Virus record (IMG/VR): IMGVR_UViG_3300035688_000005
Location: 1-63,348 of that record
Length of the DNA stretch: 63,348 nucleotides
DNA from: a virus
Reading direction: 5' to 3' (one strand)
Shown: positions 6,082 through 58,873 of the stretch, piece after piece
Position numbering within the stretch: the first letter of the stretch is position 1
Layout of the letters: every line of letters begins with the position of its first letter
Notes under the pieces: generated by a model
What the model was told of the DNA's origin: nothing
Databases searched by the model: none
What the model saw: only the letters and a program-made list of their open reading frames with translations
Translations under genes and position numbers: made by a program

Positions 6082-6117
6082 TTTAACTACCTTTCGGTTA
6101 TCCTCCGATGTTCTCAC

Positions 6118-9843: not shown

Positions 9844-10137
9844 TTACTTTCCTATTTTTGATGCAATTTGCAATTTGGCGGGCAGTCTTCTGTAGATTGC
9901 CTTCAGTATCGTTTCAGTCAATAGAGTTATACCAGAAGCTGCTAATATCACTCCAGCTCCATCAATTGTCAGCGTTGGGTTTACTTTTATCATACCTCCA
10001 ATTATTCCGCCTATGATTGCAGTTCTTCCGAATTGTATTTTATCAAATTGCTGATTCGGAGTTTTAAGGTAACCAAAAGCAGATGCTATAGCACCACCAA
10101 CGATACCTGAGCCAATACCAATTACATATTCTATCAT
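9844..10137 (-). CDS. glycine-rich membrane protein, holin candidate
   Basis: 97 residues: an N-terminal glycine-rich hydrophobic segment (YVIGIGSGIVGGAIASAFGY), a second (AIIGGIIGGMI), a third (GVILAASGITLLTETIL) and a basic C-terminal tail. The profile fits holins or related virion membrane proteins. It lies beside the cysteine-peptidase gene, separated only by homing endonuclease B. No sequence family assigned. Confidence 0.6.
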   Translation of the reverse strand: MIEYVIGIGSGIVGGAIASAFGYLKTPNQQFDKIQFGRTAIIGGIIGGMIKVNPTLTIDGAGVILAASGITLLTETILKAIYRRLPAKLQIASKIGK

Positions 10138-10152
10138 TCATTCACCCCCTGT

Positions 10153-10758
10153 TTAGTTTTCCTTACATAAATATTTTGGATGACAATCCACACATAAGGT
10201 CTTACCATTTTTGATGCCCCATAGAGAAGCACAATTAATTGCATCCTCAACTGTTTTTATTTTATTTTCTTTTATTATTTTACTGAAAGGTTCTATATGA
10301 TGAGCTTTTAATTCGCCACCATTTTTACCGCATTTTTGACAAGTATAGTTATCCTTCTTAAAAACTTCCTTTCTCCAGTCTCTCATTTGTATAGAATTTC
10401 TGATTAAATGATTTAATTCAGTTATCCCACCTTTCCAGTTAGGGTTGTTTTCCCTCCTTGTTTTATAGTTATGTTTTCCTTTCAAAGGCGATGGTCTCCC
10501 TAAATGTGCTAATCTAATTTTTTCTCTTACTTCATCCGTCACAATATGCCCCTTTACAAAATTCCCTTTTTTGTTGGTATTCCACGGTTTAGGATTATTA
10601 GTTCTATTACCACATTTACTGTGGTCTCTCAATTGCCATATATTGTTTCCAATCATATTTTCAGCCCTCATCTTTCTTAATTCTTTTGCTTTGTTCTCTC
10701 CAAAGATTTCTTCATACGTTTTGCCTTTTCTGAGAGTCCTTTTATCAATTTTTCCCAT
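10153..10758 (-). CDS. homing endonuclease B, HNH type
   Basis: 201 residues. NUMOD3-like start with HLGRPSPLKGKHNYKTRREN and NPNWKGGITELNHLIRNS, then an HNH domain: CQKCGKNGGELKAHHIEPFS and GKTLCVDCH. The zinc Cys pairs, the HH and final H are all present. It separates the peptidase from the holin candidate. The HNH part is closely similar to that of the 58.5 kb endonuclease, so the two are recent paralogues. Confidence 0.9.
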   Translation of the reverse strand: MGKIDKRTLRKGKTYEEIFGENKAKELRKMRAENMIGNNIWQLRDHSKCGNRTNNPKPWNTNKKGNFVKGHIVTDEVREKIRLAHLGRPSPLKGKHNYKTRRENNPNWKGGITELNHLIRNSIQMRDWRKEVFKKDNYTCQKCGKNGGELKAHHIEPFSKIIKENKIKTVEDAINCASLWGIKNGKTLCVDCHPKYLCKEN

Positions 10759-10803
10759 AATAGATATATTGATTTTTGGTATTTAAATATTTTTGGGATA
10801 TTC

Positions 10804-11415
10804 TCACATAACAATAAACCTAATCGGTAAATAATGCAGTCCATTCGGAGTTGTTCTTGCCTGTGCTTGTGCAAGCGTAAGGAATTCGTTAGTTTGTGGC
10901 TCTATTATCCAAATCTTCTTGTTTGAGTCAATCATTATGTTAAATGCGTGATTGTCAGACCAAGCTATTCCGAAAGCAAATGATTTTAATTCATCGCTCC
11001 AATAACCCATAAGTGCAAAAGAAAAATTATCGCAGTCGTGGTCTTCAGCTATCCACTGCCTATATCTTACTTTCGTAGCCCTTGAAAACTTGCTTGCTTC
11101 TGCAACACTTGTAAGCTGAAAGTAATCATCGCTTAAATATACCTGCGATGTTATAGATTGAAGCAAGTTCCAAGCATCATTTAATGTTATTGTCCCAAAA
11201 GATACAGCTTCTACAAGGTTAATTTGGCTTTTAAGAGCTTCGTTCTCAGCTATGAGAGCTTGCCTCGCAGCCGTGCAGTCAGTGAGCTTTACATTAGAGG
11301 AGCTAACGTCTACAAGCAAGCTGTTGTTTTGCTTCGTGAGTGCATCTACTTTGTCTCTAAGACCGCTTTCTTCAGGACAAACTAGATTTTGTAACCATTT
11401 CAAGACGTCAAACAT
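10804..11415 (-). CDS. papain-like cysteine peptidase (MOA C-terminal-like), lysin or tail peptidase
   Basis: 203 residues from ATG 11415 (GGAGATGAAAAA upstream). The N-terminal WLQNLVCPEE segment and coiled coil (to about 75) match the 9040..9309 protein. The C-terminal domain shows EDHDCDNFSFALMGYW, SDNHAFNIMI and IWIIEPQTNE: Cys, His and Glu/Asn of a papain-like fold seen in phage proteins related to the agglutinin C-terminal domain. Position after the fibres and before a holin candidate suggests cell-envelope cleavage, which is inference. Confidence 0.7.
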   Translation of the reverse strand: MFDVLKWLQNLVCPEESGLRDKVDALTKQNNSLLVDVSSSNVKLTDCTAARQALIAENEALKSQINLVEAVSFGTITLNDAWNLLQSITSQVYLSDDYFQLTSVAEASKFSRATKVRYRQWIAEDHDCDNFSFALMGYWSDELKSFAFGIAWSDNHAFNIMIDSNKKIWIIEPQTNEFLTLAQAQARTTPNGLHYLPIRFIVM

Positions 11416-11428
11416 TTTTTCATCTCCT

Positions 11429-12091
11429 TTAAGTTGTTGCAAATAAGATAAATCTTGAACCTGCTGCTATATTTCCAATTGAAAAACTTAAATCAAAAGA
11501 TGTTATCTCTGATGCAGTGTTGTTCCATTTACCATTTACAATATACTCCCATTCTCCACCTATGTTGCAGCTTCCCCTTGACGTTATTAATTTTTCCTGA
11601 CCCGCTGCTATGCAAATAACAGTTGCTTCTGCACTTGACAAATATGGGCTGTATCCTCTACCCAAAACATAAAAGCCATAAGTTGCATTATTGTTTGAGA
11701 CGGAAGTTCCGCCGTGTTGCAAGTAATTGCTAAAATAGTTGTTACCTGTGTCGCCATTAAATCTTAGACGCAAATCCTGTCCTGTTCCACTTGTCGGTTT
11801 GCAATAGGCATAAAGATGGAAGATTCTATACGTCCCAGTCCAAGTCAAAGAAACACTTGCTAAGTCAGAGCCAAGAGTTGTATCTGCAATCCTCGCAAAA
11901 ACATCTGTTTTTCGTGTAGCGTCATTTGCACTTGTCGGTGCTCCTAAGTTTGTAAGTTTCTTTGTGTTTGCGTCAAAGTCAACCTGCCAAGTTTGAGCAG
12001 CGTTATAGGTGTCATTCAAGTCCGCAGACTTCAGAACCTCGCCTGGAACGAAGTCCGTTGCTCCTCCCAATTTCACATTTCTTATTGCAAT
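11429..12091 (-). CDS. tail-fibre-like protein whose start region was duplicated by homing endonuclease C
   Basis: About 220 residues if it begins at ATT 12091 (IAIRNVKLGG); GTG 12076 is the alternative. The N-terminal LGGATDFVPGEVLKSADLND resembles the next gene upstream (LGGVADWVDGDVLYAVDLKD). The C-terminal half is a beta-rich sandwich, probably receptor- or glycan-binding. The bases GCAATAAGAAATGTGA here also occur at the start of the endonuclease gene, so the original ATG and Shine-Dalgarno now serve that gene. GGCGGGGAT precedes the ATT. Confidence 0.65.
   Translation of the reverse strand: MAIRNVKLGGATDFVPGEVLKSADLNDTYNAAQTWQVDFDANTKKLTNLGAPTSANDATRKTDVFARIADTTLGSDLASVSLTWTGTYRIFHLYAYCKPTSGTGQDLRLRFNGDTGNNYFSNYLQHGGTSVSNNNATYGFYVLGRGYSPYLSSAEATVICIAAGQEKLITSRGSCNIGGEWEYIVNGKWNNTASEITSFDLSFSIGNIAAGSRFILFATT
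12073..12088 (-). repeat. direct repeat copy 2 flanking homing endonuclease C
   Basis: GCAATAAGAAATGTGA, identical to 12732..12747. With the three preceding bases (ATT here, ATG there) 18 of 19 positions match; the one difference is the third base of the start codon. Confidence 0.85.
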
Positions 12092-12750
12092 TATAATCCC
12101 CGCCTTAAAACTTCTTCTTTGTTGACCTGTGTTTCATTAAGAAAAATTATTTTCCATCCATATTTATTTGCTGTTTCTCCCCTTTTATTTTTCCAATTTT
12201 CAAGACCACCAGCGAATTGTTCTTTATGTTTTCTATAGAATACCTCAATCGCTATTTTCTCTCCGTTGCAGTTTATGAAATCTGGGTTTATGTTCTCTAT
12301 CCAGAATCTGCCATTTCCAACGAAGATATAGGGCAATTTTAAATTATCAATAATCTCAATCATTTTCTTTTCTAAAGAGGACGGTATTCTTCGTCTCAAT
12401 ATTTTTTTAATATATTCTGAATCTTTACAAAGTTTTAAATGACTTTCTCTCATTTTTCTCCTTGTTTCTTTGGATTTAAGTCTGCCCTTTTGAAATTCGC
12501 TTATTTTTTTTCTCGTTTCCAAAGAACGCTTAATACCTTTTAATTTTTCCTTATGCTCTTGGGTTAATAATTTGCCTTTCAAATGACTTACTTTACCTTT
12601 ATGTGTTTTGCTAAGGATTTTTCTTGTTTCTTCCGAATGCATCTTGCCACTTATCCAAGGAATCATTCCTTTTTTAAATTCCGTTTCTGGCGAATAATGT
12701 ATTCCTGCTACAAATCTTCCTTGTGAATCTCTCACATTTCTTATTGCCAT
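12091..12750 (-). CDS. homing endonuclease C, Vsr-like (EDxHD), inside a fibre gene start
   Basis: 219 residues beginning MAIRNVRDSQGRFVAGIHYS; the first six residues are those of the fibre gene (MAIRNV), so the ORF is a fusion to a captured start. NUMOD3-like repeats (MHSEETRKILSKTHKGKVSH, TQEHKEKLKGI, LKSKETRRKMRESH) precede SSLEKKMIEIIDNLKLPYIF, NPDFINCNGEKIAIEVFY and YGWKIIFLNET. The nuclease half is nearly the same as in the 44 kb copy (43594..44334). Ribosome site CGGTGACT is the fibre gene's. Confidence 0.88.
   Translation of the reverse strand: MAIRNVRDSQGRFVAGIHYSPETEFKKGMIPWISGKMHSEETRKILSKTHKGKVSHLKGKLLTQEHKEKLKGIKRSLETRKKISEFQKGRLKSKETRRKMRESHLKLCKDSEYIKKILRRRIPSSLEKKMIEIIDNLKLPYIFVGNGRFWIENINPDFINCNGEKIAIEVFYRKHKEQFAGGLENWKNKRGETANKYGWKIIFLNETQVNKEEVLRRGL
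12732..12747 (-). repeat. direct repeat copy 1 flanking homing endonuclease C
   Basis: GCAATAAGAAATGTGA within the first codons of the endonuclease; see 12073..12088. Confidence 0.85.
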
Positions 12751-12760
12751 ACAGTCACCG

Positions 12761-13135
12761 TTAAATATTTGGAATCAAAGTCAAGACAGCAGATGCGATT
12801 GTTCCATCTCCACCACCTGTTAATATCTTTAAACTAATTGTTTCCCCAGATGAGATTATGTCATTAACAACCAAAATAACTCCAGCACCTGAATACCATC
12901 TGCAAGCCCTTGCTGTATCGTAATTTTTGATTGCCTTTACTTTTATACTATAAGTGAAAGGGTTAGTCCACTGAGCTAAAACAGTTCCAACACCTCCAGC
13001 ATAATACCTCTCATACTGTCCATTTAAAACAAATGTGTTTGCAGCAAGTGTTGTATCTTTTAGGTCTACTGCGTAAAGGACATCTCCATCTACCCAGTCG
13101 GCTACCCCTCCAAGTTTTATGATTTTCACTGCCAT
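12761..13135 (-). CDS. fibre-associated hypothetical protein
   Basis: 124 residues, beta-rich. N-terminal IIKLGGVADWVDGDVLYAVD is a module shared with the 11429..12091 fibre, likely an attachment segment for the tail tip. The remainder (AQWTNPFTYSIKVKAIKNYD, GAGVILVVNDIISSGETI) looks like a small jelly-roll. Virion location inferred from context. Confidence 0.6.
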   Translation of the reverse strand: MAVKIIKLGGVADWVDGDVLYAVDLKDTTLAANTFVLNGQYERYYAGGVGTVLAQWTNPFTYSIKVKAIKNYDTARACRWYSGAGVILVVNDIISSGETISLKILTGGGDGTIASAVLTLIPNI

Positions 13136-13145
13136 TTCAAATCAC

Positions 13146-13862
13146 CTAATATTCTTGTTCAAATATAACTTCATTTAAATTTTGAATTGCATATCCTGCG
13201 GGAGCAGATGCCCCAAGCACAAAATAAGCTGTAGCTGTGGCAGCTGTCGGTATCAAAGTTGACTCGCCCTTTTTGACTCCGTTTACATACCATTCCACTT
13301 TTTGACCAGCTTTGAATCTTAAAGCAAGGATATAAACAGGACCACTATAAGAACTGCCTATCCCGGTTTGGATAGTTGTTGCGAGGTCAACAATTGTGAG
13401 AGTAGTTCCATTATGGACTAATCCTTTCAGTGCCAACTGCATATCAGTAACAGTGCCATCCAACCTAAATCCTACAGATTTTAGCGTTGGGTCAGCTGCG
13501 GTGTTGTTATGACTAACCATAACCCAACTTTTGCTGTCTGCTGCTATTCCATAAGATGAAGTAAACATAAATCCCAAATAAAAATCTTTATTCCAATCAA
13601 AAACTTGTCCAGTCCCTAACCAAAAAATTCCATAACTTCTTATCAATTCCTTATAAGCAACTGCAGGAGTGAATCCAGTCCCAGCATAAATATGTAAAAT
13701 CCTCCATCCTTTAGTAGGAGGCTGTCCCCCAGAAGTCGTCCAATTTGTGAAATCAAATATAGGTAAAAAATCAGTGTGCTTAGTAAAAGTATCCTTAAAG
13801 TTTTGATTGACTTCGTCTGCGTTTGCCACTGTTCCGTTTACAAAAGTGTAAGGTAATGCCAT
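13146..13862 (-). CDS. tail-fibre/lectin-like protein
   Basis: 238 residues. N-terminus LPYTFVNGTVANADEVNQNF is typical of phage fibre proteins that attach to a baseplate. The remainder has the alternating pattern of a concanavalin-like sandwich (GPVYILALRFKAGQKVEWYV then NGVKKGES), suggesting carbohydrate binding. Starts at ATG 13862 right after endonuclease D. Confidence 0.65.
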   Translation of the reverse strand: MALPYTFVNGTVANADEVNQNFKDTFTKHTDFLPIFDFTNWTTSGGQPPTKGWRILHIYAGTGFTPAVAYKELIRSYGIFWLGTGQVFDWNKDFYLGFMFTSSYGIAADSKSWVMVSHNNTAADPTLKSVGFRLDGTVTDMQLALKGLVHNGTTLTIVDLATTIQTGIGSSYSGPVYILALRFKAGQKVEWYVNGVKKGESTLIPTAATATAYFVLGASAPAGYAIQNLNEVIFEQEY

Positions 13863-13866
13863 ATCA

Positions 13867-14356
13867 TCAACTCGTTATAAAATTAATTATCTTGTCTTTC
13901 TCTTGTTTATTGTATCTCTCTAATGAGTGCCATAAGTTGTGACAATCCCTGCACAAAATTATAAGATTTTCTGGACTATTATTCTTCCAATTCTTGTCTT
14001 TGTGGTGAACATTCAATCTCCTGTTTCCTTCCTTAAAATCGCAAATCATACATTTCTTATCAAATGATTCGTATGCAATTCTCCTCGCTTCCTTATGGTA
14101 GAGAGACTTTGCATTTCCGCCTTTCCAAGTAGGGTTGTTTTCCTTTGAATTTTTGCAACTATACGAACAATATTTCGCTGTTTCTTCTCTTGCAGGTATC
14201 ACTTCAAACATCTTTCCACACCCTAAACATTTCTTTTTTATTTTATCTTTCTTGTTCCAAGCTGGTTTTCCTGTCTTCCATCTCTTTCCGAATGCTGGTT
14301 GCCTTTCTTTTGACAGACCTTTGTTCCAAGCTTTTTTGTCCTTTTTTGAATGTCAT
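13867..14356 (-). pseudogene. homing endonuclease D, HNH type, frameshifted near its start
   Basis: The main frame (from residue CGKMFEVIPAREETAKYCSY onward) holds Cys knuckles, NPTWKGGNAKSLYHKEARRI and an HNH motif (MICDFKEGNRRLNVHHKDKN, LCRDCHNLWH). Reading upstream, the NUMOD-like start MTFKKGQ at 14356 is in another frame from AWNKGLSKERQPAFGKRWKT; the join falls in a run of six A (GGACAAAAAAGCTTGG) where five would restore the frame. Either a real inactivating insertion, a recoding site, or a sequencing error. Confidence 0.7.
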
Positions 14357-14390
14357 ATTTATATATTGTGATTGGTATTATTTATATTTT

Positions 14391-14741
14391 TTACGAACTG
14401 ATTTTATGTTGCCATATTATCGCAATTTCTACAGCACTTGTTTTTGTAATCCCAGTGAACACACTTCTTGAAAATAAAACAGGCGTTAAGTCCGTGTTGA
14501 ACTCTCCTGTTTCTGTTAATGTGTTTCCATTCAAATCAGTCGAAGGAATGAACCCTCTAGTTTTGATTAACTGATTTACTGTATCAAACTGCGGATATGT
14601 GGCTACATAACCATAAAAACCTCCTACTGGAGTTTGTAACGCTGTGTCCGTTACTGCTGGAGTTGCCGACCCAACACCCATTTTAAACTGTGTCACAGCA
14701 GTATTATCTGGCGTTGTTTTATACAATCTATTTAATGTCAT
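14391..14741 (-). CDS. tail-fibre-like structural protein, N-terminus uncertain
   Basis: 116 residues: TLNRLYKTTPDNTAVTQFKM then FIPSTDLNGNTLTETGEFNT, common in phage tail-associated proteins. The open frame continues upstream past the ATG (residues KISSGDIITNIGRN) into the end of endonuclease E without a start codon, so the original N-terminus was probably separated by that insertion. The present ATG 14741 has weak ribosome signal. Confidence 0.6.
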   Translation of the reverse strand: MTLNRLYKTTPDNTAVTQFKMGVGSATPAVTDTALQTPVGGFYGYVATYPQFDTVNQLIKTRGFIPSTDLNGNTLTETGEFNTDLTPVLFSRSVFTGITKTSAVEIAIIWQHKISS

Positions 14742-14775
14742 ATTTCGACCAATATTTGTGATAATATCCCCAGAA

Positions 14776-15417
14776 CTAATTTTTACCCCCTCCGTTTATC
14801 TCTTCAATATGTGTTTTCCTATGACAAGGAATGCATAAAGTTCTTCCATTATCAACATCAAATTTCAATTCTGGATTTGTATCTCTATATTTTATGTGAT
14901 GCGGATGCAAAATTTTACCTTTGATATTGCATTTCTGACAAGTATATTTGTCTCTTGCATAGACTTTTGTTCTCCATTCTTTCCACTGTTTTGATTTCCT
15001 CTCTATCTCTTTCTCTGAACTTATACCGCCTTTCCAATTGGGATTTTTTTCACCTTTCGTTCTTTCAGATGTAAATTCTGTTTTTGGACTTCTTCTTTGC
15101 CCCTTTGATGCCAAACTTACTTTTAATCTATGTTCCTTTGAGAGTTTTTTTCCTAACCAATATCTTGTAGGATTTTTTAATTTAGATTCACTAATTTTAT
15201 TTTTGGTCTCTTCAGAATGTTTCTCCCCATAAAAGGGATTATTAACCCCCCAACGAATAATTTTCTTTCTATAGTCTGGATTCCGCCAATTTTTTTTACT
15301 TGCTTCTCCTATCTTTTGTTTCGTTTCTTCAGATTGCTTTCTGCCAACATTTACCTTATTTCCATTTTTAAAGGAAAACGCATTTATAGGTTTAAGATGC
15401 CCTTTCTTGAAACTCAT
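14776..15417 (-). CDS. homing endonuclease E, HNH type
   Basis: 213 residues from ATG 15417 (AAAGTGGTGAAT upstream); the frame is open to another ATG at 15480 that looks like the captured start of a virion gene. NUMOD3-like repeats (KPINAFSFKNGNKVNVGRK, FYGEKHSEETKNKISESK, LGKKLSKEHRLKVSLASKG) precede NPNWKGGISSEKEIER and an HNH domain: YTCQKCNIKGKILHPHHIKY, GRTLCIPCHRKTH. Confidence 0.88.
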   Translation of the reverse strand: MSFKKGHLKPINAFSFKNGNKVNVGRKQSEETKQKIGEASKKNWRNPDYRKKIIRWGVNNPFYGEKHSEETKNKISESKLKNPTRYWLGKKLSKEHRLKVSLASKGQRRSPKTEFTSERTKGEKNPNWKGGISSEKEIERKSKQWKEWRTKVYARDKYTCQKCNIKGKILHPHHIKYRDTNPELKFDVDNGRTLCIPCHRKTHIEEINGGGKN

Positions 15418-15479
15418 ATTCACCACTTTAAAGTTATAATTATTATTTATATTTTGTGATATATTAATATAATTTTCCA

Positions 15480-15650
15480 TCAGCCCACCTCATATCCTTT
15501 TCGTTGCAGTTTTAAAATCACATCAGCTCTTATTTCTTCGTCTGACATTTCTGCATCGTAGGTAAATTGTTCCAAAGGATATTCTTCAACTTTGGCGATT
15601 TTTACCGTATCTCCGTTTTCAGTTTCCGTAATTATCTCTATCGTAACCAT
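15480..15650 (-). CDS. small tail-region hypothetical protein
   Basis: 56 residues from ATG 15650, following TGGGGAGATGATT. MVTIEIITETENGDTVKIAK then an acidic helix DAEMSDEEIRADVILKLQRK. Overlaps the upstream stop region. Virion or assembly role unknown. Confidence 0.55.
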   Translation of the reverse strand: MVTIEIITETENGDTVKIAKVEEYPLEQFTYDAEMSDEEIRADVILKLQRKGYEVG

Positions 15651-24545: not shown

Positions 24546-25097
24546 TTATAGCGAATGATGAATCATTTTGCGAACGTTTCTTTTAAGATTTGGTTTATCC
24601 TTATTATGTCTTTTCATATGACAGCTTTGACATAGAGTTATAAGGTTTTCCAGAAAATTATCTTCCGGTTTTTCGTATGGTTTGATATGGTGTGCAACTA
24701 TTTTAATTCCAGATTTTCCACAATCTTGACAGGTGAAATAATCTCTTTGCCATACTTTAATTCTGATTTTGTCCCAGTCTTCGCCTCTATACATAGAATA
24801 AAGTTTGGTTTTCCCCCCTTGCCAGTTCCAGTTATTTTCACCCTTCGTTCTATCTGAAGTAAATTGACCAGAATTTGACAATCCTAATTTGCTTGGGTTT
24901 TTATCTGTCTGAAATGGTGAGATTAATTTGCCTTCTTTAAAAAGCCTTTTTCTTGTATCAGATAATTTTTCACGTATTTCTATTCTTTTATTCCTTAAAG
25001 CAACATCTGGGTTTCTCATACCTTTTTTGAAACTGCCTTTGTTGGTATAACCTTTTAGTCCTTTATTCCAAGCGATATGTCCCTGTTTAAATACCAT
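24546..25097 (-). CDS. homing endonuclease F, HNH type
   Basis: 183 residues: NUMOD3-like start (FKQGHIAWNKGLKGYTNKGS), RTKGENNWNWQGGKTKLYSM, then HNH with YFTCQDCGKSGIKIVAHHIK and ENLITLCQSCHMKRH. Stands between the HK97-gp10-like gene and the tail terminator candidate, with its own leader. Confidence 0.9.
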   Translation of the reverse strand: MVFKQGHIAWNKGLKGYTNKGSFKKGMRNPDVALRNKRIEIREKLSDTRKRLFKEGKLISPFQTDKNPSKLGLSNSGQFTSDRTKGENNWNWQGGKTKLYSMYRGEDWDKIRIKVWQRDYFTCQDCGKSGIKIVAHHIKPYEKPEDNFLENLITLCQSCHMKRHNKDKPNLKRNVRKMIHHSL

Positions 25098-25151
25098 AAC
25101 TTAACTACCTATTAGTTAATATATTATTGATTTTTGTGATTTATAAAGATT
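25098..25151 (-). promoter_or_regulatory. homing-endonuclease leader module
   Basis: Minus strand: TTTATAAATCACAAAAATCA, then AATAATATATTAACTAATAG, then GTAGTTAAGTT and ATG. It matches the leaders at 39628, 41243, 44335 and 58818: TATA-like AT block, CACAAAAAYC, AT repeat, GGTAGTTAA. Confidence 0.65.
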
Positions 25152-37122: not shown

Positions 37123-38865
37123 TTAAATCACTGGCATCCAAACACATCTACAATTTGGGTGAAGCGGTATCTTTTTAATTGCTTCTCCTACTGTGAATAT
37201 TTTTCCATTCATTTTGTCGCACTCAGCACAGCGTCTTCCGTCTTCTGGGACTGAATTCCATTTTACTTTATCCACACCCATATCTGAATATCTGTTAAGC
37301 GTTCCTCCATTTAATACCCTCATAGTCTCTGTCCTTGCTATTCTTAACGCTTCTTCTTTGGTTATAAAAGTAGTATCTGGGAATCCTTTAGCTTTTCTTG
37401 TCTCATTCACTGCTTTCATAACGTCATCAGAAATTGATAGAGTAGGTTTTCCTCTCATTATCCCTTCGTTTAAAACAATTTTTATAGCGTCTACTTCATC
37501 GTCAGAATAAGTTTTCTTTAAATCAGAGAATTCTGTCTTTCTTATAAAATCTGATATATAATTTGCTGCTGGAGAATATTCAAAGCCTCCCAGTTCCTCT
37601 CTTAGGGTAGAGTAATTGGAATAAATGGGGGACATAGTTGGCGTTTTAATCGACGGTGTTTGATAGATAGGTTTTTTAGTTGGAGCTTTCACTGTATCTG
37701 TTGGTTGCCCTACTTGTGTTTGCTGTGCTAATTTTGCCTGCCACTGACCATAATAGATGTTTCCTCCTTCTACTTCTGACATATCCAATTCTTTTCTTGC
37801 TTCATTTAAAGTAATCTGGTTGGTAGTCCACATCTGGGATATTCTATTTGCCTTAGAACCTACATCTTCAAAGTCTAATTTACCGAATTCTATATGAGCA
37901 TCTTTTGCTAACCCATATTTTTCTATGACTGGTTTTAGAATAAATCTTTCAATCTGGCTTGTGAATACTTTTCTGTCTGACATAACCGACATAATAAATG
38001 CAACTAATTGTTCTTTTGCTGTTGCCCTGTTTACATCTTCAGTTAGTCCCACTAAAAATTCTGGTGCTATTCCTGCTATGATTTTTCTCTTTGTGTGTCT
38101 TAGAGCATAATCCAAGTTTATTTCCTTTCCGCTAAAACTCAAGTCTTCCATCTTATAAGGTTTATTTACAATCGCATTCTCTTCCATAGCTAAGTTTTCT
38201 AAATAAGCAGCAAGACTATCTATCTCTTCCGCATTAGTTGGGAAATCTTTGTCACCGAAACTGATTATCTTTTTAGGAACAGCCCTGTATTTAGCAATCA
38301 TAGCTAAAGCTCTTTCCATTTCTTCAAGCATTTCAGTATCATTTATAATAGAAGCCAAGTCACTTCTTCCATATACCCCGTTTATACTCTGATTCAGTTT
38401 AAAGTGAACCAACTTCATCCAAGGGACTGGAATAGCTTTGATTCTTATCTTGTGATAGGAATAACCGATATGATAAGACAATTCATACCATCTAGCATCT
38501 GGCTCGTTGTAAATCGGGTCAACTCTTTGGAGATAAGCTTCTTGGTCTGATTTTGGATTTCCATATTTGTCAAAGTTTATGTAAATTCTACTCGGGTCTG
38601 CTATCGAATAAAATCTGTCTGGTAAACCTGTTTCTAATGAGTAATCAATCTCCATATAGCCATTTCCCGTGATTAGAGTTTTCAAAATGCAATCTAACTG
38701 TTGATATTCAAATCCTCTGTCGTCCAAATATTTTTGCAAGAACTCTGCTGTTCGTTCATCTTCACTCACGACTTTAATCTCGTTCCCTGTTATAAATTTA
38801 GCCACTTGATTTAATGCCGCTCTGACTAACGAGTTATACATATACATTTCCCAGCACTGACGCAT
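37123..38865 (-). CDS. portal protein fused to MuF-like domain, N-terminus probably truncated
   Basis: 580 residues. Portal body: YNSLVRAALNQVAKFITGNE, MKLVHFKLNQSINGVYGRSD (stem/wing), IIAGIAPEFLVGLTEDVNRA (clip region). Residues ~470-580 are a MuF/SPP1 gp7-type domain with ALRIARTETMRVLNGGTLNR and CAECDKMNGKIFTVGE ... HPNCRCVW. The body lacks the usual N-terminal ~60 residues; a decayed stretch encoding such residues lies upstream (38866..39011) behind an endonuclease gene. ATG 38865 has only a weak ribosome site. Confidence 0.82.
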   Translation of the reverse strand: MRQCWEMYMYNSLVRAALNQVAKFITGNEIKVVSEDERTAEFLQKYLDDRGFEYQQLDCILKTLITGNGYMEIDYSLETGLPDRFYSIADPSRIYINFDKYGNPKSDQEAYLQRVDPIYNEPDARWYELSYHIGYSYHKIRIKAIPVPWMKLVHFKLNQSINGVYGRSDLASIINDTEMLEEMERALAMIAKYRAVPKKIISFGDKDFPTNAEEIDSLAAYLENLAMEENAIVNKPYKMEDLSFSGKEINLDYALRHTKRKIIAGIAPEFLVGLTEDVNRATAKEQLVAFIMSVMSDRKVFTSQIERFILKPVIEKYGLAKDAHIEFGKLDFEDVGSKANRISQMWTTNQITLNEARKELDMSEVEGGNIYYGQWQAKLAQQTQVGQPTDTVKAPTKKPIYQTPSIKTPTMSPIYSNYSTLREELGGFEYSPAANYISDFIRKTEFSDLKKTYSDDEVDAIKIVLNEGIMRGKPTLSISDDVMKAVNETRKAKGFPDTTFITKEEALRIARTETMRVLNGGTLNRYSDMGVDKVKWNSVPEDGRRCAECDKMNGKIFTVGEAIKKIPLHPNCRCVWMPVI

Positions 38866-39011
38866 CTCTTCGTGCGGATTCGGTCAATTTTATGTATTTA
38901 ACATAAAATTTCTAACCACCGCATTTTGAAGATGTCACGGCGAAATGGGGCAAATGACCCAACGACTGTTTTTCGTTCTACTCTTCTATTGAAAAAAGAT
39001 TCACGTAGAGT
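38866..39011 (-). pseudogene. decayed N-terminal segment of the portal gene
   Basis: Translating across frames gives LTLRESFFNRRVERKTVVGS then FAPFRRD in one frame, LQNAVVRNFMLNT in the portal frame (one-base deletion between), then two stops (TAA, TGA) before PNPHEEMRQC joins the portal body. A probable original start with ribosome site (AAAGTGATGGTATGAAATTA) remains on the far side of the endonuclease at about 39690. Read as a gene start split and then eroded. Confidence 0.6.
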
Positions 39012-39627
39012 AAGCAAGCAACCACCTCCTTTGTTCCATTATAACATTAACTATCTCTTCCAATCTTTCTTTTATTTCGTGTTCCCAAAAACGCATCATA
39101 TAATACTTGTTTTTTAATTTTTCGTTAACTATTATATCTCTAATCTTATTTCTATTTTGCTCAGTAGTCAATCTTCTTTCTACTGGGTATTCTCTCGGAC
39201 AACCGTGCCAGTAGCAACCGTCTACAAATATAACTATGTTTGGCTCTATAAAAATATCGCACTGAACGAAGTTTTCTATAACTTTATGGGTTTCAAAGGG
39301 AATACCTACTTCTCTCAAACTATTTTGAAGCATAACTTCGGGAATAGTGTTTCTTACTGGTATAACCTGCTTGAGACGCAACTCCCTTAGTTTTTGTTTT
39401 GTCTGTTCGGTATGCGTTATCCCTCTATTCCAAGGGACTATTTTGCCTTCTTTGTATAATCTTTTCCGTGTTTTGGATATTTTTATCTTGTGTGCTTCTG
39501 AAAGAGGTTTTCCTAATTTTGATTGCCTTATCTTTTCTTTTGTTCCTTCAGTAATACGTCTTCCTTGCCTTGTTAAAGACATCTTTTCCTTAGTCTTTTT
39601 TGAATGTTTCTTTCCTTTCATTCCCAT
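39001..39627 (-). CDS. homing endonuclease G, Vsr/EDxHD type
   Basis: 208 residues. Four NUMOD3-like repeats (GKKHSKKTKEKMSLTRQGRR, TEGTKEKIRQSKLGKPLS, EAHKIKISKTRKRL, HTEQTKQKLRELR) then a Vsr-like nuclease: PEVMLQNSLREVGIPFETHK, CDIFIEPNIVIFVDGCYWHG followed by CPREYP, and MMRFWEHEI. It lies between the 39.7 kb gene and the portal. Confidence 0.92.
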   Translation of the reverse strand: MGMKGKKHSKKTKEKMSLTRQGRRITEGTKEKIRQSKLGKPLSEAHKIKISKTRKRLYKEGKIVPWNRGITHTEQTKQKLRELRLKQVIPVRNTIPEVMLQNSLREVGIPFETHKVIENFVQCDIFIEPNIVIFVDGCYWHGCPREYPVERRLTTEQNRNKIRDIIVNEKLKNKYYMMRFWEHEIKERLEEIVNVIMEQRRWLLAYST

Positions 39628-39685
39628 ATTAACTACCTCTTGGTTATATATATTTATGGGTTTTTGTGGTATATTAATTTAATTT
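39628..39685 (-). promoter_or_regulatory. homing-endonuclease leader module
   Basis: Minus strand AATTAATATACCACAAAAAC, CCATAAATATATATAACCAA, GAGGTAGTTAAT, ATG. Nearly identical to the 41243 and 58818 leaders. Confidence 0.7.
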
Positions 39686-41242: not shown

Positions 41243-41297
41243 TTTAACTACCTCTTGGTTATATATATGATATTATAATTTTTGTTGTTTATAAATA
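41243..41297 (-). promoter_or_regulatory. homing-endonuclease leader module
   Basis: Minus strand TTTATAAACAACAAAAATTA, TAATATCATATATATAACCA, AGAGGTAGTTAAA, ATG. Confidence 0.7.
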
Positions 41298-43277: not shown

Positions 43278-43398
43278 CTTCCTCGTCATCTTCGTCCTCG
43301 TCTTTTTTCTCTTTTTCTCTATCTTCGTCAGAATCTTTAGAAGTAAAACTATTTCTATCTCTACCTTTCTCTATCTCAAATTTCGCTTGCATAAGCAT
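43258..43398 (-). CDS. 46-residue acidic-tail protein
   Basis: MLMQAKFEIEKGRDRNSFTS then a run of Asp/Glu/Lys ending EEDEYGTY. Overlaps both neighbours (TAATG upstream, 20 nt downstream). Perhaps a small chaperone- or scaffold-like peptide; unknown. Confidence 0.5.
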   Translation of the reverse strand: MLMQAKFEIEKGRDRNSFTSKDSDEDREKEKKDEDEDDEEDEYGTY

Positions 43399-43598
43399 TA
43401 AGGCGTAGTCGCTAACGCCAGATTAGATGTGACAAAGATGCCTGTTGCTGGAAGCTGTGCAGTCGTTACGTCGCTTCCTTTATCAACATTTGCCGTCGGT
43501 GTCGCCGCACTTGCAACTGGTCTGCAACCTGCTTCCAAATCTTCATTAGTTACCGTTTCAGCTGCTACACCTGTGTCTATTTGTGAACTAATTTTAAT
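43398..43598 (-). CDS. small virion-type protein, probable ATT start
   Basis: 66 residues if started at ATT 43598 (IKISSQIDTGVAAETVTN), four bases after a perfect AAGGAGG; TTG 43601 is only one base after. Low-complexity Ala/Thr-rich (ASAATPTANVDKGSDVTTAQ). Located right behind endonuclease I, so its former start may have been displaced. Confidence 0.5.
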   Translation of the reverse strand: MKISSQIDTGVAAETVTNEDLEAGCRPVASAATPTANVDKGSDVTTAQLPATGIFVTSNLALATTP

Positions 43599-44334
43599 CA
43601 ATCCTCCTTATTTTTTCTATATCTACTTGCGTTTCATCTAAAAATATCATTCTCCATCCGTATTTACTACAAACATCTATTCTTTTTTGTTTCCAATTTT
43701 CCAATCCGCCTCTAAACATCTCTTTATGTTTTTTATAGAATACTTCAATAGCAATTTTCTCTCCGTTACAGTTTATAAAATCAGGATTGATATTCTCTAT
43801 CCAGAATTTTCCATCGCCCACAAAGATATATGGCAATTTTAACTTTTCAATAATCCTTATCATTTTTATTTCAAGAGAGGATGGCGTTCTTCTCCCCAAT
43901 ACTTTTCTTCTATATTCTTTGTCTTGCCATAATTTTTTATGAGAATCTCTTTGTTTTACTATCGTCTCTTCAGAAAAACAACCTTTTTTACCTTTATTCC
44001 AAATTTGGTGAACTCCTAAATATTTCTTTCTGCTTTCTCTTTGTTTTTTTCTAGTTTCTTCTGTTGGTATTTTCCCTAAATGAGACAGGCTCTGTTTCTG
44101 TTTAGTTTCAACTGTAGCTTTTTTCCCTTTGTTTAAAGAAACACACCCTTTCTTGAATTCTGTTTTTGGACTGACGTGCTGTCCCTTTTTTGTTTTTGCA
44201 CTACTTTCAACATATCTTTTAACTCGTTCATCAGTTTCCTTTGTTAGACCTTTATTCCAAGGTTTTTGACCAAGATGACAAAGCCTATTAGTTTCTTTTT
44301 GTTCTTCGGTTTGTTTATATCCTTTTTTTGGCAT
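43594..44334 (-). CDS. homing endonuclease I, Vsr-like (EDxHD), paralogue of C
   Basis: 246 residues. NUMOD3-like repeats (GYKQTEEQKETNRLCHLGQK, WNKGLTKETDERVKRYVESS, TEETRKKQRESRKKYLG) and the nuclease half SSLEIKMIRIIEKLKLPYIF, NPDFINCNGEKIAIEVFYKK, YGWRMIFLDETQV, almost the same as endonuclease C. Clear recent duplication within the genome. Confidence 0.92.
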   Translation of the reverse strand: MPKKGYKQTEEQKETNRLCHLGQKPWNKGLTKETDERVKRYVESSAKTKKGQHVSPKTEFKKGCVSLNKGKKATVETKQKQSLSHLGKIPTEETRKKQRESRKKYLGVHQIWNKGKKGCFSEETIVKQRDSHKKLWQDKEYRRKVLGRRTPSSLEIKMIRIIEKLKLPYIFVGDGKFWIENINPDFINCNGEKIAIEVFYKKHKEMFRGGLENWKQKRIDVCSKYGWRMIFLDETQVDIEKIRRID

Positions 44335-44392
44335 ATTTCATCACTTGTCGGGTATATATATTATTGTTGGTTTTTGTGGTTAATTAATTTAA
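44335..44392 (-). promoter_or_regulatory. homing-endonuclease leader module
   Basis: Minus strand AATTAATTAACCACAAAAAC, CAACAATAATATATATACCC, GACAAGTGATGAAAT, ATG. Shares TATA block and CACAAAAACC; ribosome part differs. Confidence 0.65.
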
Positions 44393-45412
44393 TTATACCT
44401 GCCCTCTATCTATTCCTTCGTCTGACTGAGCTGTTCCTGATTCAAAAACTATTTCTTCTTTTCCTTTAAAAATATCCTTGCATCTTTCTCTTGCGTCTTT
44501 TTCTGACACTCCTGCTTGAACTAAATTCGCTACGCATCCTTCGAATCCTGCCTGTTCTTTCTTTTCAAGTCCAGGACGTAAAAGCGAGTCAACCCAACGC
44601 TCTATAAGAGAGTCATCTCCAACGTTTTCATTCAGCCATTTTTTATATTGCGGTGTATCAAGAAGCGAATCTGCTATTCCCTTTGCAGTATTTCCTTCAA
44701 GGGCTTGTTGTCTTATTTCTCTTATAATTTCTCTTTCAATTCCTGCTTGCTCTTTATAACTTTCCATTTTTACACCAATTTTCTTTAAAGCTGCATCTAC
44801 TACTCCTTGTGCGTCACTTGTGGTCATATCGAACTCTTTTTCTATTTGGTAAACAATATCTCCGTAATCTTCTCCTTTATCTACGAGTTGTTTCACCCTT
44901 TTATCTACCTCATCTAGTTGTTCCATTCCAACTGTTGTTTTTCTTTCTTCTAATTGTTTTTCCCACCCACAAGAAGGGCACTGAAGTTTCCATTTATAAT
45001 CTACAACTGGCTTTCCACAATTAGGACATTTCGTTGTGTCTTGCTCTTTTAGACTTTCTATTTTAACTTTGTCTATGTTTCCGTATTCGTCTTCTTGTTC
45101 GACTGTAAATTCTTTGAACCTTTCATCAAATTCGAAACCTGCTGCCATAACATCTGATATTTTATCTCGCTCATCGCTTGATAAATCCTTCCAATCTACT
45201 CCTGAAAGCGTGTCATTTAAGCCAGCGGCTTTTAAAAGACCTCTTCGTTCTCTGTCAGTGCAACTGTCCCAAGTTGAACGAAAGCTTTCTTTCTCAGTCG
45301 GCCATTTGCCTGTTATGGATTTATGAATAGAGGCACAGTAAGCACCTGGATTATCTTTGTCTTTGTTTTTATTCATACAATCTTTCATATCTTTATACTC
45401 ACCAAAAGGCAT
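44393..45412 (-). CDS. Cys-motif/zinc-ribbon head-region protein
   Basis: 339 residues. Starts FGEYKDMKDCMNKNKDKDNP then GAYCASIHKSITGKWP, a Cys motif common in phage capsid-associated proteins. A ribbon CPNCGKPVVDYKWKLQCPSC lies near 130. IESLKEQD, MESYKEQAG and TEKESFR echo motifs in the protease fusion. A second FEGCVANLVQAGVSEKDARE segment near the end resembles the first. Likely structural. Confidence 0.65.
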   Translation of the reverse strand: MPFGEYKDMKDCMNKNKDKDNPGAYCASIHKSITGKWPTEKESFRSTWDSCTDRERRGLLKAAGLNDTLSGVDWKDLSSDERDKISDVMAAGFEFDERFKEFTVEQEDEYGNIDKVKIESLKEQDTTKCPNCGKPVVDYKWKLQCPSCGWEKQLEERKTTVGMEQLDEVDKRVKQLVDKGEDYGDIVYQIEKEFDMTTSDAQGVVDAALKKIGVKMESYKEQAGIEREIIREIRQQALEGNTAKGIADSLLDTPQYKKWLNENVGDDSLIERWVDSLLRPGLEKKEQAGFEGCVANLVQAGVSEKDARERCKDIFKGKEEIVFESGTAQSDEGIDRGQV

Positions 45413-58221: not shown

Positions 58222-58817
58222 AATAAACTCCTTCCCCCATAAGTTTCTGTTTGTTTATGACATCCTAAACATAAAGTTCTCCCGTTATTTATATCCCACA
58301 GAGAGGGACAATTAAGTGCTTCTTCTACAGTTTTGATTTGATTTTCTTCTACTATTTTACTGAAAGGTTTGATATGGTCTGCTTGCAAAGTTCCACCTAT
58401 TTTGCCACAGTTCTGACAAGTAAAATCATCTCGTTCAAAAACATTTCTTCTCCAGATTTTATACTCTAAAGATTTCCGTATAAGTTCATTTAGTAATGTT
58501 ACACCACCCTTCCAAAAATTACTGTTAACTCCACGTCTACTATATCGTGGTTTTCCAGAAAGGGCTATTTTATTTGCCGAACCTATTTTTCTTCTAGTCT
58601 TTTCAAGGGTTATGTGACCAAGTAACTTTAATCTTCTTTTTTCTATTGTTTCTTTTGACTGTTTTCTGCCTTTCATCTTTAAAGATATTCTGGTTTTTGT
58701 ATCATCAGAAACTATTTTACCTTTTTCTGAATCACGTATCTTCTGTTTAGTTTCTTCAGAATGCTTTCTACCAAAGAAACCTTGATATTTTTTATGCAGA
58801 TAAATTCCTTTCGGCAT
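58215..58817 (-). CDS. homing endonuclease J, HNH type
   Basis: 200 residues from ATG 58817 (AAAGGTAGTGATAAGT). NUMOD3-like (FGRKHSEETKQKIRDSEKGK, DDTKTRISLKMKGRKQS), NSNFWKGGVTLLNELIRKSL, then FTCQNCGKIGGTLQADHIKP and GRTLCLGCHKQT. Paralogue of endonuclease B. Confidence 0.92.
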   Translation of the reverse strand: MPKGIYLHKKYQGFFGRKHSEETKQKIRDSEKGKIVSDDTKTRISLKMKGRKQSKETIEKRRLKLLGHITLEKTRRKIGSANKIALSGKPRYSRRGVNSNFWKGGVTLLNELIRKSLEYKIWRRNVFERDDFTCQNCGKIGGTLQADHIKPFSKIVEENQIKTVEEALNCPSLWDINNGRTLCLGCHKQTETYGGRSLLC

Positions 58818-58873
58818 ACTTATCACTACCTTTTGGTTATATATATTATGGTTTTTGTGGTTTATTAATTTGA
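58818..58873 (-). promoter_or_regulatory. homing-endonuclease leader module
   Basis: Minus strand AATTAATAAACCACAAAAAC, CATAATATATATAACCAAAA, GGTAGTGATAAGT, ATG. Confidence 0.7.

What the first reader, a model, noticed from the sequence alone, without database searches (positions are those of the whole stretch)
12073..12750. Endonuclease C has captured the start codon of a fibre gene
The endonuclease begins MAIRNV, the natural start of the fibre gene (compare IIKLGGV and VKLGGAT in paralogous N-termini), and 19 nt (18 identical) are duplicated at its far end in front of the fibre body. The only mismatch turns ATG into ATT, and GGCGGGGAT supplies a new ribosome site. The insertion thus steals the original signal while rebuilding a start for the host gene.
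Basis: partly seen in the sequence, partly recalled or inferred. Interest (0 to 1): 0.8.

Follow-up and report, generated by a model that had tools for sequence, protein, structure and literature searches.

The report
Homing endonuclease took fibre gene's start
In this virus a selfish DNA-cutting gene has landed just after the start of a probable tail-fibre gene, so it is now read from the fibre gene's own start signal, while a 16-19-base copy left behind gives the fibre only a weak, unusual start; this is a neat but small variation on a known kind of insertion.

Summary
On the minus strand, ATGGCAATAAGAAATGTGA (12750-12732) opens the endonuclease ORF. ATTGCAATAAGAAATGTGA (12091-12073) stands in front of the fibre body (18/19; 16 nt perfect). 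Chance is remote: 0 of 500 randomised flank comparisons scored as high, and none of the other 10 endonuclease genes tested in the window shows such a repeat. Joining the flanks at the repeat gives TAA-CGGTGACTGT-ATG and MAIRNVKLGGATDFV, matching the neighbouring paralogue MAVKIIKLGGVADWV without gaps. Endonuclease homologues (L006, L007, L024) start M-R-D at the codon that is V6 here, so MAIRN is an addition. At least five endonucleases in the window carry their own conserved leader; this one has none and uses the fibre's Shine-Dalgarno (dG -7.4). Start capture is therefore well supported. The "rebuilt start" is only partly supported. The ribosome site is the endonuclease's own 3' end; the fibre keeps only ATT 12091 (dG -5.3, correct spacing), and GTG 12076 has no Shine-Dalgarno (-0.1). 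ATT may come from the insert rather than from a mutated ATG. The enzyme is a NUMOD3 protein with an I-Bth0305I-like domain. No uninterrupted homologue was found. Verdict: a new variant of a known kind.

The parts
12761..13135 (-). fibre-like gene A, MAVKIIKLGGVADWV..., paralogue upstream of the insertion
   Evidence: ORF; N-terminus aligns gaplessly with the restored fibre B N-terminus, 18/35 identical
12755..12759 (-). Shine-Dalgarno GGTGA, read as the original fibre B ribosome site, now in front of the endonuclease ATG
   Evidence: duplex dG -7.4 with the anti-SD, spacing 3
12732..12750 (-). repeat copy 1: ATGGCAATAAGAAATGTGA, first codons of fibre B, now start of the endonuclease ORF (MAIRNV)
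12733..12735 (-). GTG codon (V6), position of the natural initiator of endonuclease homologues (M-R-D...)
   Evidence: L006/L007 (GTG AGA GAT) and L024 (ATG AGA GAT) start here; poor SD here (-1.5)
12091..12750 (-). endonuclease C: NUMOD3 motifs plus Vsr/I-Bth0305I-like nuclease domain
   Evidence: Pfam NUMOD3 E 2.8e-8; PHROG 314 homing endonuclease; Foldseek 3r3p E 1e-4
12094..12378 (-). nuclease domain (residues 125-219; conserved E127, P156-D157-F158, E169)
   Evidence: alignment A2; model pLDDT about 90 over most of it
12096..12106 (-). AAGGCGGGGAT, ribosome-site-like sequence inside the endonuclease 3' end, 4 nt before the ATT; homologous to AAGGAGG at the end of the sister endonuclease 43594-44334
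12073..12091 (-). repeat copy 2: ATTGCAATAAGAAATGTGA in front of the fibre body; perfect core 12073-12088
12089..12091 (-). ATT overlapping the endonuclease stop (TAATT), candidate start of fibre B
   Evidence: SD dG -5.3, spacing 3
12074..12076 (-). GTG, first canonical start codon left in fibre B; no Shine-Dalgarno
   Evidence: dG -0.1
11429..12091 (-). fibre-like gene B (host gene of the insertion), 220 codons from ATT; 'fibre' is by context and paralogy only
   Evidence: ORF; weak PHROG virion/head-decoration hits; structure model unusable

Best explanation
A free-standing NUMOD3/Vsr-like homing endonuclease gene inserted between codons 6 and 7 of fibre gene B and left a short direct duplication of the target (16 perfect nt, or 19 with one later change). 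Its own leader was lost and its coding sequence from codon 2 was joined in frame to the fibre's first codons. It is now translated from the fibre's Shine-Dalgarno and ATG with five extra residues (MAIRN). The fibre body keeps copy 2 of the repeat and must be re-initiated at the overlapping TAATT, using ribosome-binding sequence encoded in the endonuclease's last codons, probably weakly and coupled to the endonuclease. Shown: the repeat, the ORFs, the missing leader, the Shine-Dalgarno positions, the homologues' starts. Inferred: the insertion event, its direction, ATT use, and that the duplication arose by staggered cutting or microhomology template switching during ectopic repair.
For: Repeat far beyond chance at both ends of the ORF. 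Joining the flanks at the repeat gives SD-ATG-MAIRNVKLGGATDFVPGEVL, 18/35 identical without gaps to paralogue A. Endonuclease homologues start M-R-D at codon 6. SD: ATG 12750 -7.4, GTG 12735 -1.5, ATT 12091 -5.3 at spacing 3, GTG 12076 -0.1. The endonuclease-specific leader seen at 25139, 39669, 41265, 44379 and 58860 is absent here. The insert of 640 nt between the repeats is not a multiple of three, so no fusion or intein; no Rfam intron in 10000-15600. Parallel in L010, whose endonuclease ends GGGGGTGATCGTTAATGGC with an intact TAATG.
Against: No uninterrupted homologue found, so ancestry rests on internal comparison. One metagenomic sequence only; an assembly or base-call error at the single ATT cannot be excluded. 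The 16S of the host is unknown; SD energies assume the universal anti-SD. ATT may be too weak to matter, in which case the fibre is simply knocked down.
Confidence: 0.68

Rival explanations
1. The junction arose by deletion, not insertion: two tandem fibre paralogues with near-identical starts flanked an endonuclease gene, and a deletion fused the first 19 nt of the upstream paralogue to codon 2 of the endonuclease. The repeat is then the shared start of two fibre genes.
For: Tandem fibre paralogues do lie here with similar N-termini; deletion also explains the loss of the endonuclease leader.
Against: Needs gene duplication, insertion and deletion; the surviving paralogue A differs from B at 13 of the first 36 nt of the coding sequence, so a third, nearly identical copy has to be assumed.
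Confidence: 0.15
2. The endonuclease still starts at its own GTG 12735 and the fibre at GTG 12076; the repeat is a homing or operator site kept at both ends, as T4 intron endonucleases repress themselves at a copy of their homing site.
For: GTG occurs at codon 6 in both copies; operator copies resembling homing sites are known for I-TevI (PMC2988022).
Against: Neither GTG has a Shine-Dalgarno (-1.5 and -0.1) in a genome where most genes tested have one; the repeat spans exactly the fibre's first codons.
Confidence: 0.1
3. The fibre gene is dead or nearly so: the insertion removed its start and ATT is a mere remnant; other fibres in the operon take its place. (This can be true together with start capture; it concerns only the second half.)
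For: No canonical start with SD remains; several fibre-like genes lie side by side.
Against: The 220-codon frame is intact, and the 16 nt after ATT are unchanged relative to copy 1, so decay, if any, is recent.
Confidence: 0.25

Closest known systems
T4 mobA insertion in gene 39/60 and Aeh1 mobE insertion in nrdA (transposition-like insertions; PMC2988022, PMC3014915)
   Same: Free-standing homing endonuclease gene inserted inside a host gene, which is then made from rearranged translation signals; no splicing element.
   Different: Those split an enzyme into two polypeptides and are HNH type; here the insertion is at codon 6, so nothing is split off, the endonuclease takes the start, and a 16-19 nt duplication flanks it. 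The review text contains no word beginning 'duplicat'.
T4 nrdA/mobE stop-start overlap UAAUGA (PMC2988022)
   Same: Stop and start overlap by one nucleotide, suggesting translational coupling.
   Different: There the endonuclease is the downstream partner; here the host gene is, with UAAUU instead of UAAUG.
ShiLan-type hidden HNH insertion in phage methylase (PMC11855218)
   Same: Endonuclease inserted in a coding gene without intein or intron; possible GTG start; stop codon at the very end of the insertion.
   Different: ShiLan leaves the host frame open and is read out of frame; here the frames are separate and the host start is captured.
I-Bth0305I, EDxHD/Vsr-like homing endonuclease
   Same: Predicted nuclease fold (Foldseek E 1e-4, probability 1.00), modular protein with DNA-binding motifs.
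   Different: I-Bth0305I is recorded as a mobile intron protein; this gene has no intron. The H and second D of the motif are not conserved in alignment A2.

Membership tests
Free-standing homing endonuclease with NUMOD3 repeats | NUMOD3 DNA-binding motifs | tested here: met
   Pfam PF07460, 3 stretches, 34 bits against cut-off 20.4
Free-standing homing endonuclease with NUMOD3 repeats | not within an intron or intein | tested here: met
   no Rfam match up to E 1 in 10000-15600; insert 640 nt, not a multiple of three
Free-standing homing endonuclease with NUMOD3 repeats | site-specific cleavage of endonuclease-free alleles and homing | not testable with these tools
   needs enzyme or mixed infection
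EDxHD / Vsr-like (I-Bth0305I) homing endonucleases | catalytic domain fold | tested here: met
   3r3p is the only PDB entry with Foldseek E below 0.001, TM 0.63 on the target; profile match E 0.05
EDxHD / Vsr-like (I-Bth0305I) homing endonucleases | E, D, H, D active-site motif | tested here: inconclusive
   E127, D157, E169 conserved in A2; no conserved H or second D seen; the original paper was not held
Transposable element with target-site duplication | short direct repeats of the target at both ends | tested here: met
   16 perfect / 18 of 19 nt, but seen at only one of 11 endonuclease genes in the window
Transposable element with target-site duplication | transposase/integrase and constant element ends | tested here: not met
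   only the endonuclease ORF lies between the repeats; the leader of sister genes is missing

The most novel reading that the evidence does not exclude
Free-standing Vsr-like endonuclease genes enter new sites by a transposition-like reaction that duplicates about 16 bp of target, and their 3' ends carry a portable ribosome site plus near-start (AAGGNGG...AATT) that keeps the interrupted gene alive, so the element swaps translation signals with its host and can leave precisely by recombination between the repeats.
Probability: 0.15. Interest if true: 0.65.

Novelty: new variant of a known kind. Interest (0 to 1): 0.42.

Why it matters
How free-standing homing endonucleases reach wholly new sites is poorly documented. 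A recent insertion with a clean short duplication at both junctions is an unusually readable footprint, and it shows how such a gene can obtain expression (host start and ribosome site) while the host gene possibly survives at a non-canonical start. Both halves are easy to test with reporters.

Tried and rejected
Intron: no Rfam match and no spare sequence in the insert. Intein or in-frame fusion: the endonuclease has a stop and the frame is offset. Frameshift into the fibre: no slippery heptamer seen at the junction (by eye). Chance repeat: rejected. General pattern of duplications at endonuclease insertions: not seen at 10 other genes in the window or 17 in other contigs; weak leader resemblances at 14359 and 15420 fit the shared endonuclease leader or AT-richness. 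Search for an uninterrupted fibre: IMG/VR by fibre B, by the A/B alignment, by fibre 13146-13862 and by an N-terminal DNA pattern, phages by DNA and protein, records of MCP relatives searched with the baseplate protein, 371 genomes of the L024 phylum searched with the MCP: nothing useful. Fibre B structure model unusable (pLDDT 31). Host remains unknown; the best terminase hit is an archaeal tailed virus, Halogranum tailed virus 1, and a Nanoarchaeota MAG holds an endonuclease relative.

Full report
What is there. The window is a 63,348-base virus record. Its late genes on the minus strand are interspersed with at least 11 endonuclease genes, HNH or Vsr-like, many with NUMOD3 motifs. Endonuclease C (12091-12750) has NUMOD3 repeats and a C-terminal nuclease domain. 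In the alignment with 11 homologues (A2), E127, P156-D157-F158, K165 and E169 are invariant. Its predicted structure finds the I-Bth0305I catalytic domain (3r3p) as the only PDB entry below E 0.001. It lies between fibre-like gene A (12761-13135) and fibre-like gene B (from 12091 down to 11429). The label fibre is from context: family matches are weak and the structure model failed.

The repeat. The ORF opens with ATGGCAATAAGAAATGTGA (12750-12732). Directly after it, overlapping its stop, stands ATTGCAATAAGAAATGTGA (12091-12073), followed by AATTGGGAGGAGCA, the fibre body. Eighteen of 19 bases agree and 16 are a perfect block. Comparing the two flanks of each endonuclease gene by local alignment, this gene scores 36, reached by 0 of 500 shuffles; the other ten in the window give p from 0.03 to 0.9 and 17 in other contigs none below 0.1. 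In the whole window only two exact 16-nt direct repeats lie within 1 kb of each other. The repeat is real and specific to this insertion.

Whose start is it? Four lines say the fibre's. First, joining the flanks at the repeat gives TAA-CGGTGACTGT-ATG and the protein MAIRNVKLGGATDFVPGEVLKSADLNDT; paralogue A reads MAVKIIKLGGVADWVDGDVLYAVDLKDT, 18/35 identical without a gap. Second, endonuclease homologues have no MAIRN: L006 and L007 begin GTG AGA GAT and L024 ATG AGA GAT, exactly at codon 6 (GTG AGA GAT) of endonuclease C. Third, sister endonucleases in the window carry a leader of their own, CCACAAAAACCA...ATATATATAACCAAGAGGTAGTTAA-ATG, in whole or part at 25139, 39669, 41265, 44379 and 58860, with a trace at 6104; no comparable full leader was found elsewhere in the window. 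Endonuclease C has none; it follows the stop of fibre A by ten bases. Fourth, pairing with the anti-Shine-Dalgarno is good at ATG 12750 (-7.4, spacing 3) and poor at GTG 12735 (-1.5).

What became of the fibre's start? Most genes tested in this genome have a Shine-Dalgarno at spacing 2-6. In fibre B, GTG 12076 has none (-0.1). ATT 12091 has AAGGCGGGGAT at spacing 3 (-5.3). That ribosome-site-like sequence is endonuclease coding sequence (...LRRGL*). The sister endonuclease 43594-44334 has AAGGAGG at the homologous place, so it is a property of the inserted gene's 3' end, not something newly made at this site. Several related endonuclease genes likewise end in a ribosome site overlapping the next start, e.g. 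L010 GGGGGTGATCGTTAATGGC and L021 AATTAATGG; TAATT here looks like such a TAATG with a weak start codon. Two origins of the ATT fit. It may be a mutated ATG (19-nt duplication, one change), or it may be the end of the insert (16-nt perfect duplication): aligned 3' ends of the two sister endonucleases agree through GATTATAATT / GATTAAAATT and diverge exactly where the repeat begins. The second reading needs no mutation but a coincidental AT match (1 in 16); I cannot decide.

Mechanism. Shown: two copies of the fibre's first codons flank an endonuclease gene that lacks its usual leader and runs in frame from the fibre ATG; the 640-nt insert is not a multiple of three, so no fusion protein and no intein; there is no intron family match. 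Inferred: ectopic insertion during repair of a break near codon 6. The TGA shared by the target (AAATGTGA) and the ancestral endonuclease start (ATGAGAGA) could be the microhomology, and the duplication could come from staggered nicks or template switching. Predicted consequence: endonuclease made at the fibre's level from the fibre's signals; fibre B made at a lower level by re-initiation at UAAUU, or lost. Recombination between the repeats would restore an intact fibre gene.

Known relatives of the phenomenon. T4 and Aeh1 mob genes show transposition-like insertions that split host genes, promoterless cassettes that use upstream promoters, and a UAAUGA overlap (PMC2988022; PMC3014915). ShiLan elements show endonuclease insertion without splicing (PMC11855218). 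The paper searches made here turned up no case of a free-standing homing endonuclease that takes the initiation codon of its host gene and is flanked by a target duplication; this is a limited, open-access search. I therefore class it as a new variant of a known kind. The main gap is the missing uninterrupted relative: viral, phage and genome searches found none, which says the collections hold no close kin rather than anything about the site.

Noticed in passing
25077-25139, 39628-39669, 41243-41275, 44335-44379, 58815-58860 (minus strand): A conserved leader, CCACAAAAACCA...ATATATATAACCAAGAGGTAGTTAA, precedes at least five endonuclease genes of both HNH and Vsr-like type; no comparable full leader was found elsewhere in the window. 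It looks like a shared TATA-type promoter plus ribosome site carried by the elements.
   Followed up: partly
43289-44393: After the endonuclease at 43594-44334 comes a 63-residue frame, ISSQIDTGVAAETVTNEDLEAGCRPV...ATTP*, with no ATG; it may be the cut-off C-terminus of the gene 44393-45412, i.e. a gene in pieces.
   Followed up: partly
38860-39010: The frame ESFFNRRVERKTVVGSFAPFRRDIFKMRWLEILC* follows the endonuclease at 39001-39627 and may likewise be a severed C-terminus of the upstream gene.
   Followed up: no
13867-14374: HNH endonuclease gene with N-terminus MTFKKGQKSLEQR in one frame and the HNH domain in another: frameshifted or decaying copy, or an assembly error.
   Followed up: no
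14346-14360 and 14731-14745: 14 of 15 bases around the start of this HNH gene match those around the start of the fibre gene 14391-14741 (family D9); possibly another shared start, but the flank test was not significant.
   Followed up: partly
L010 5500-5540: HNH gene ending GGGGGTGATCGTTAATGGC: ribosome site encoded in its last codons and TAATG overlap with the next gene, the intact counterpart of TAATT in the window.
   Followed up: no
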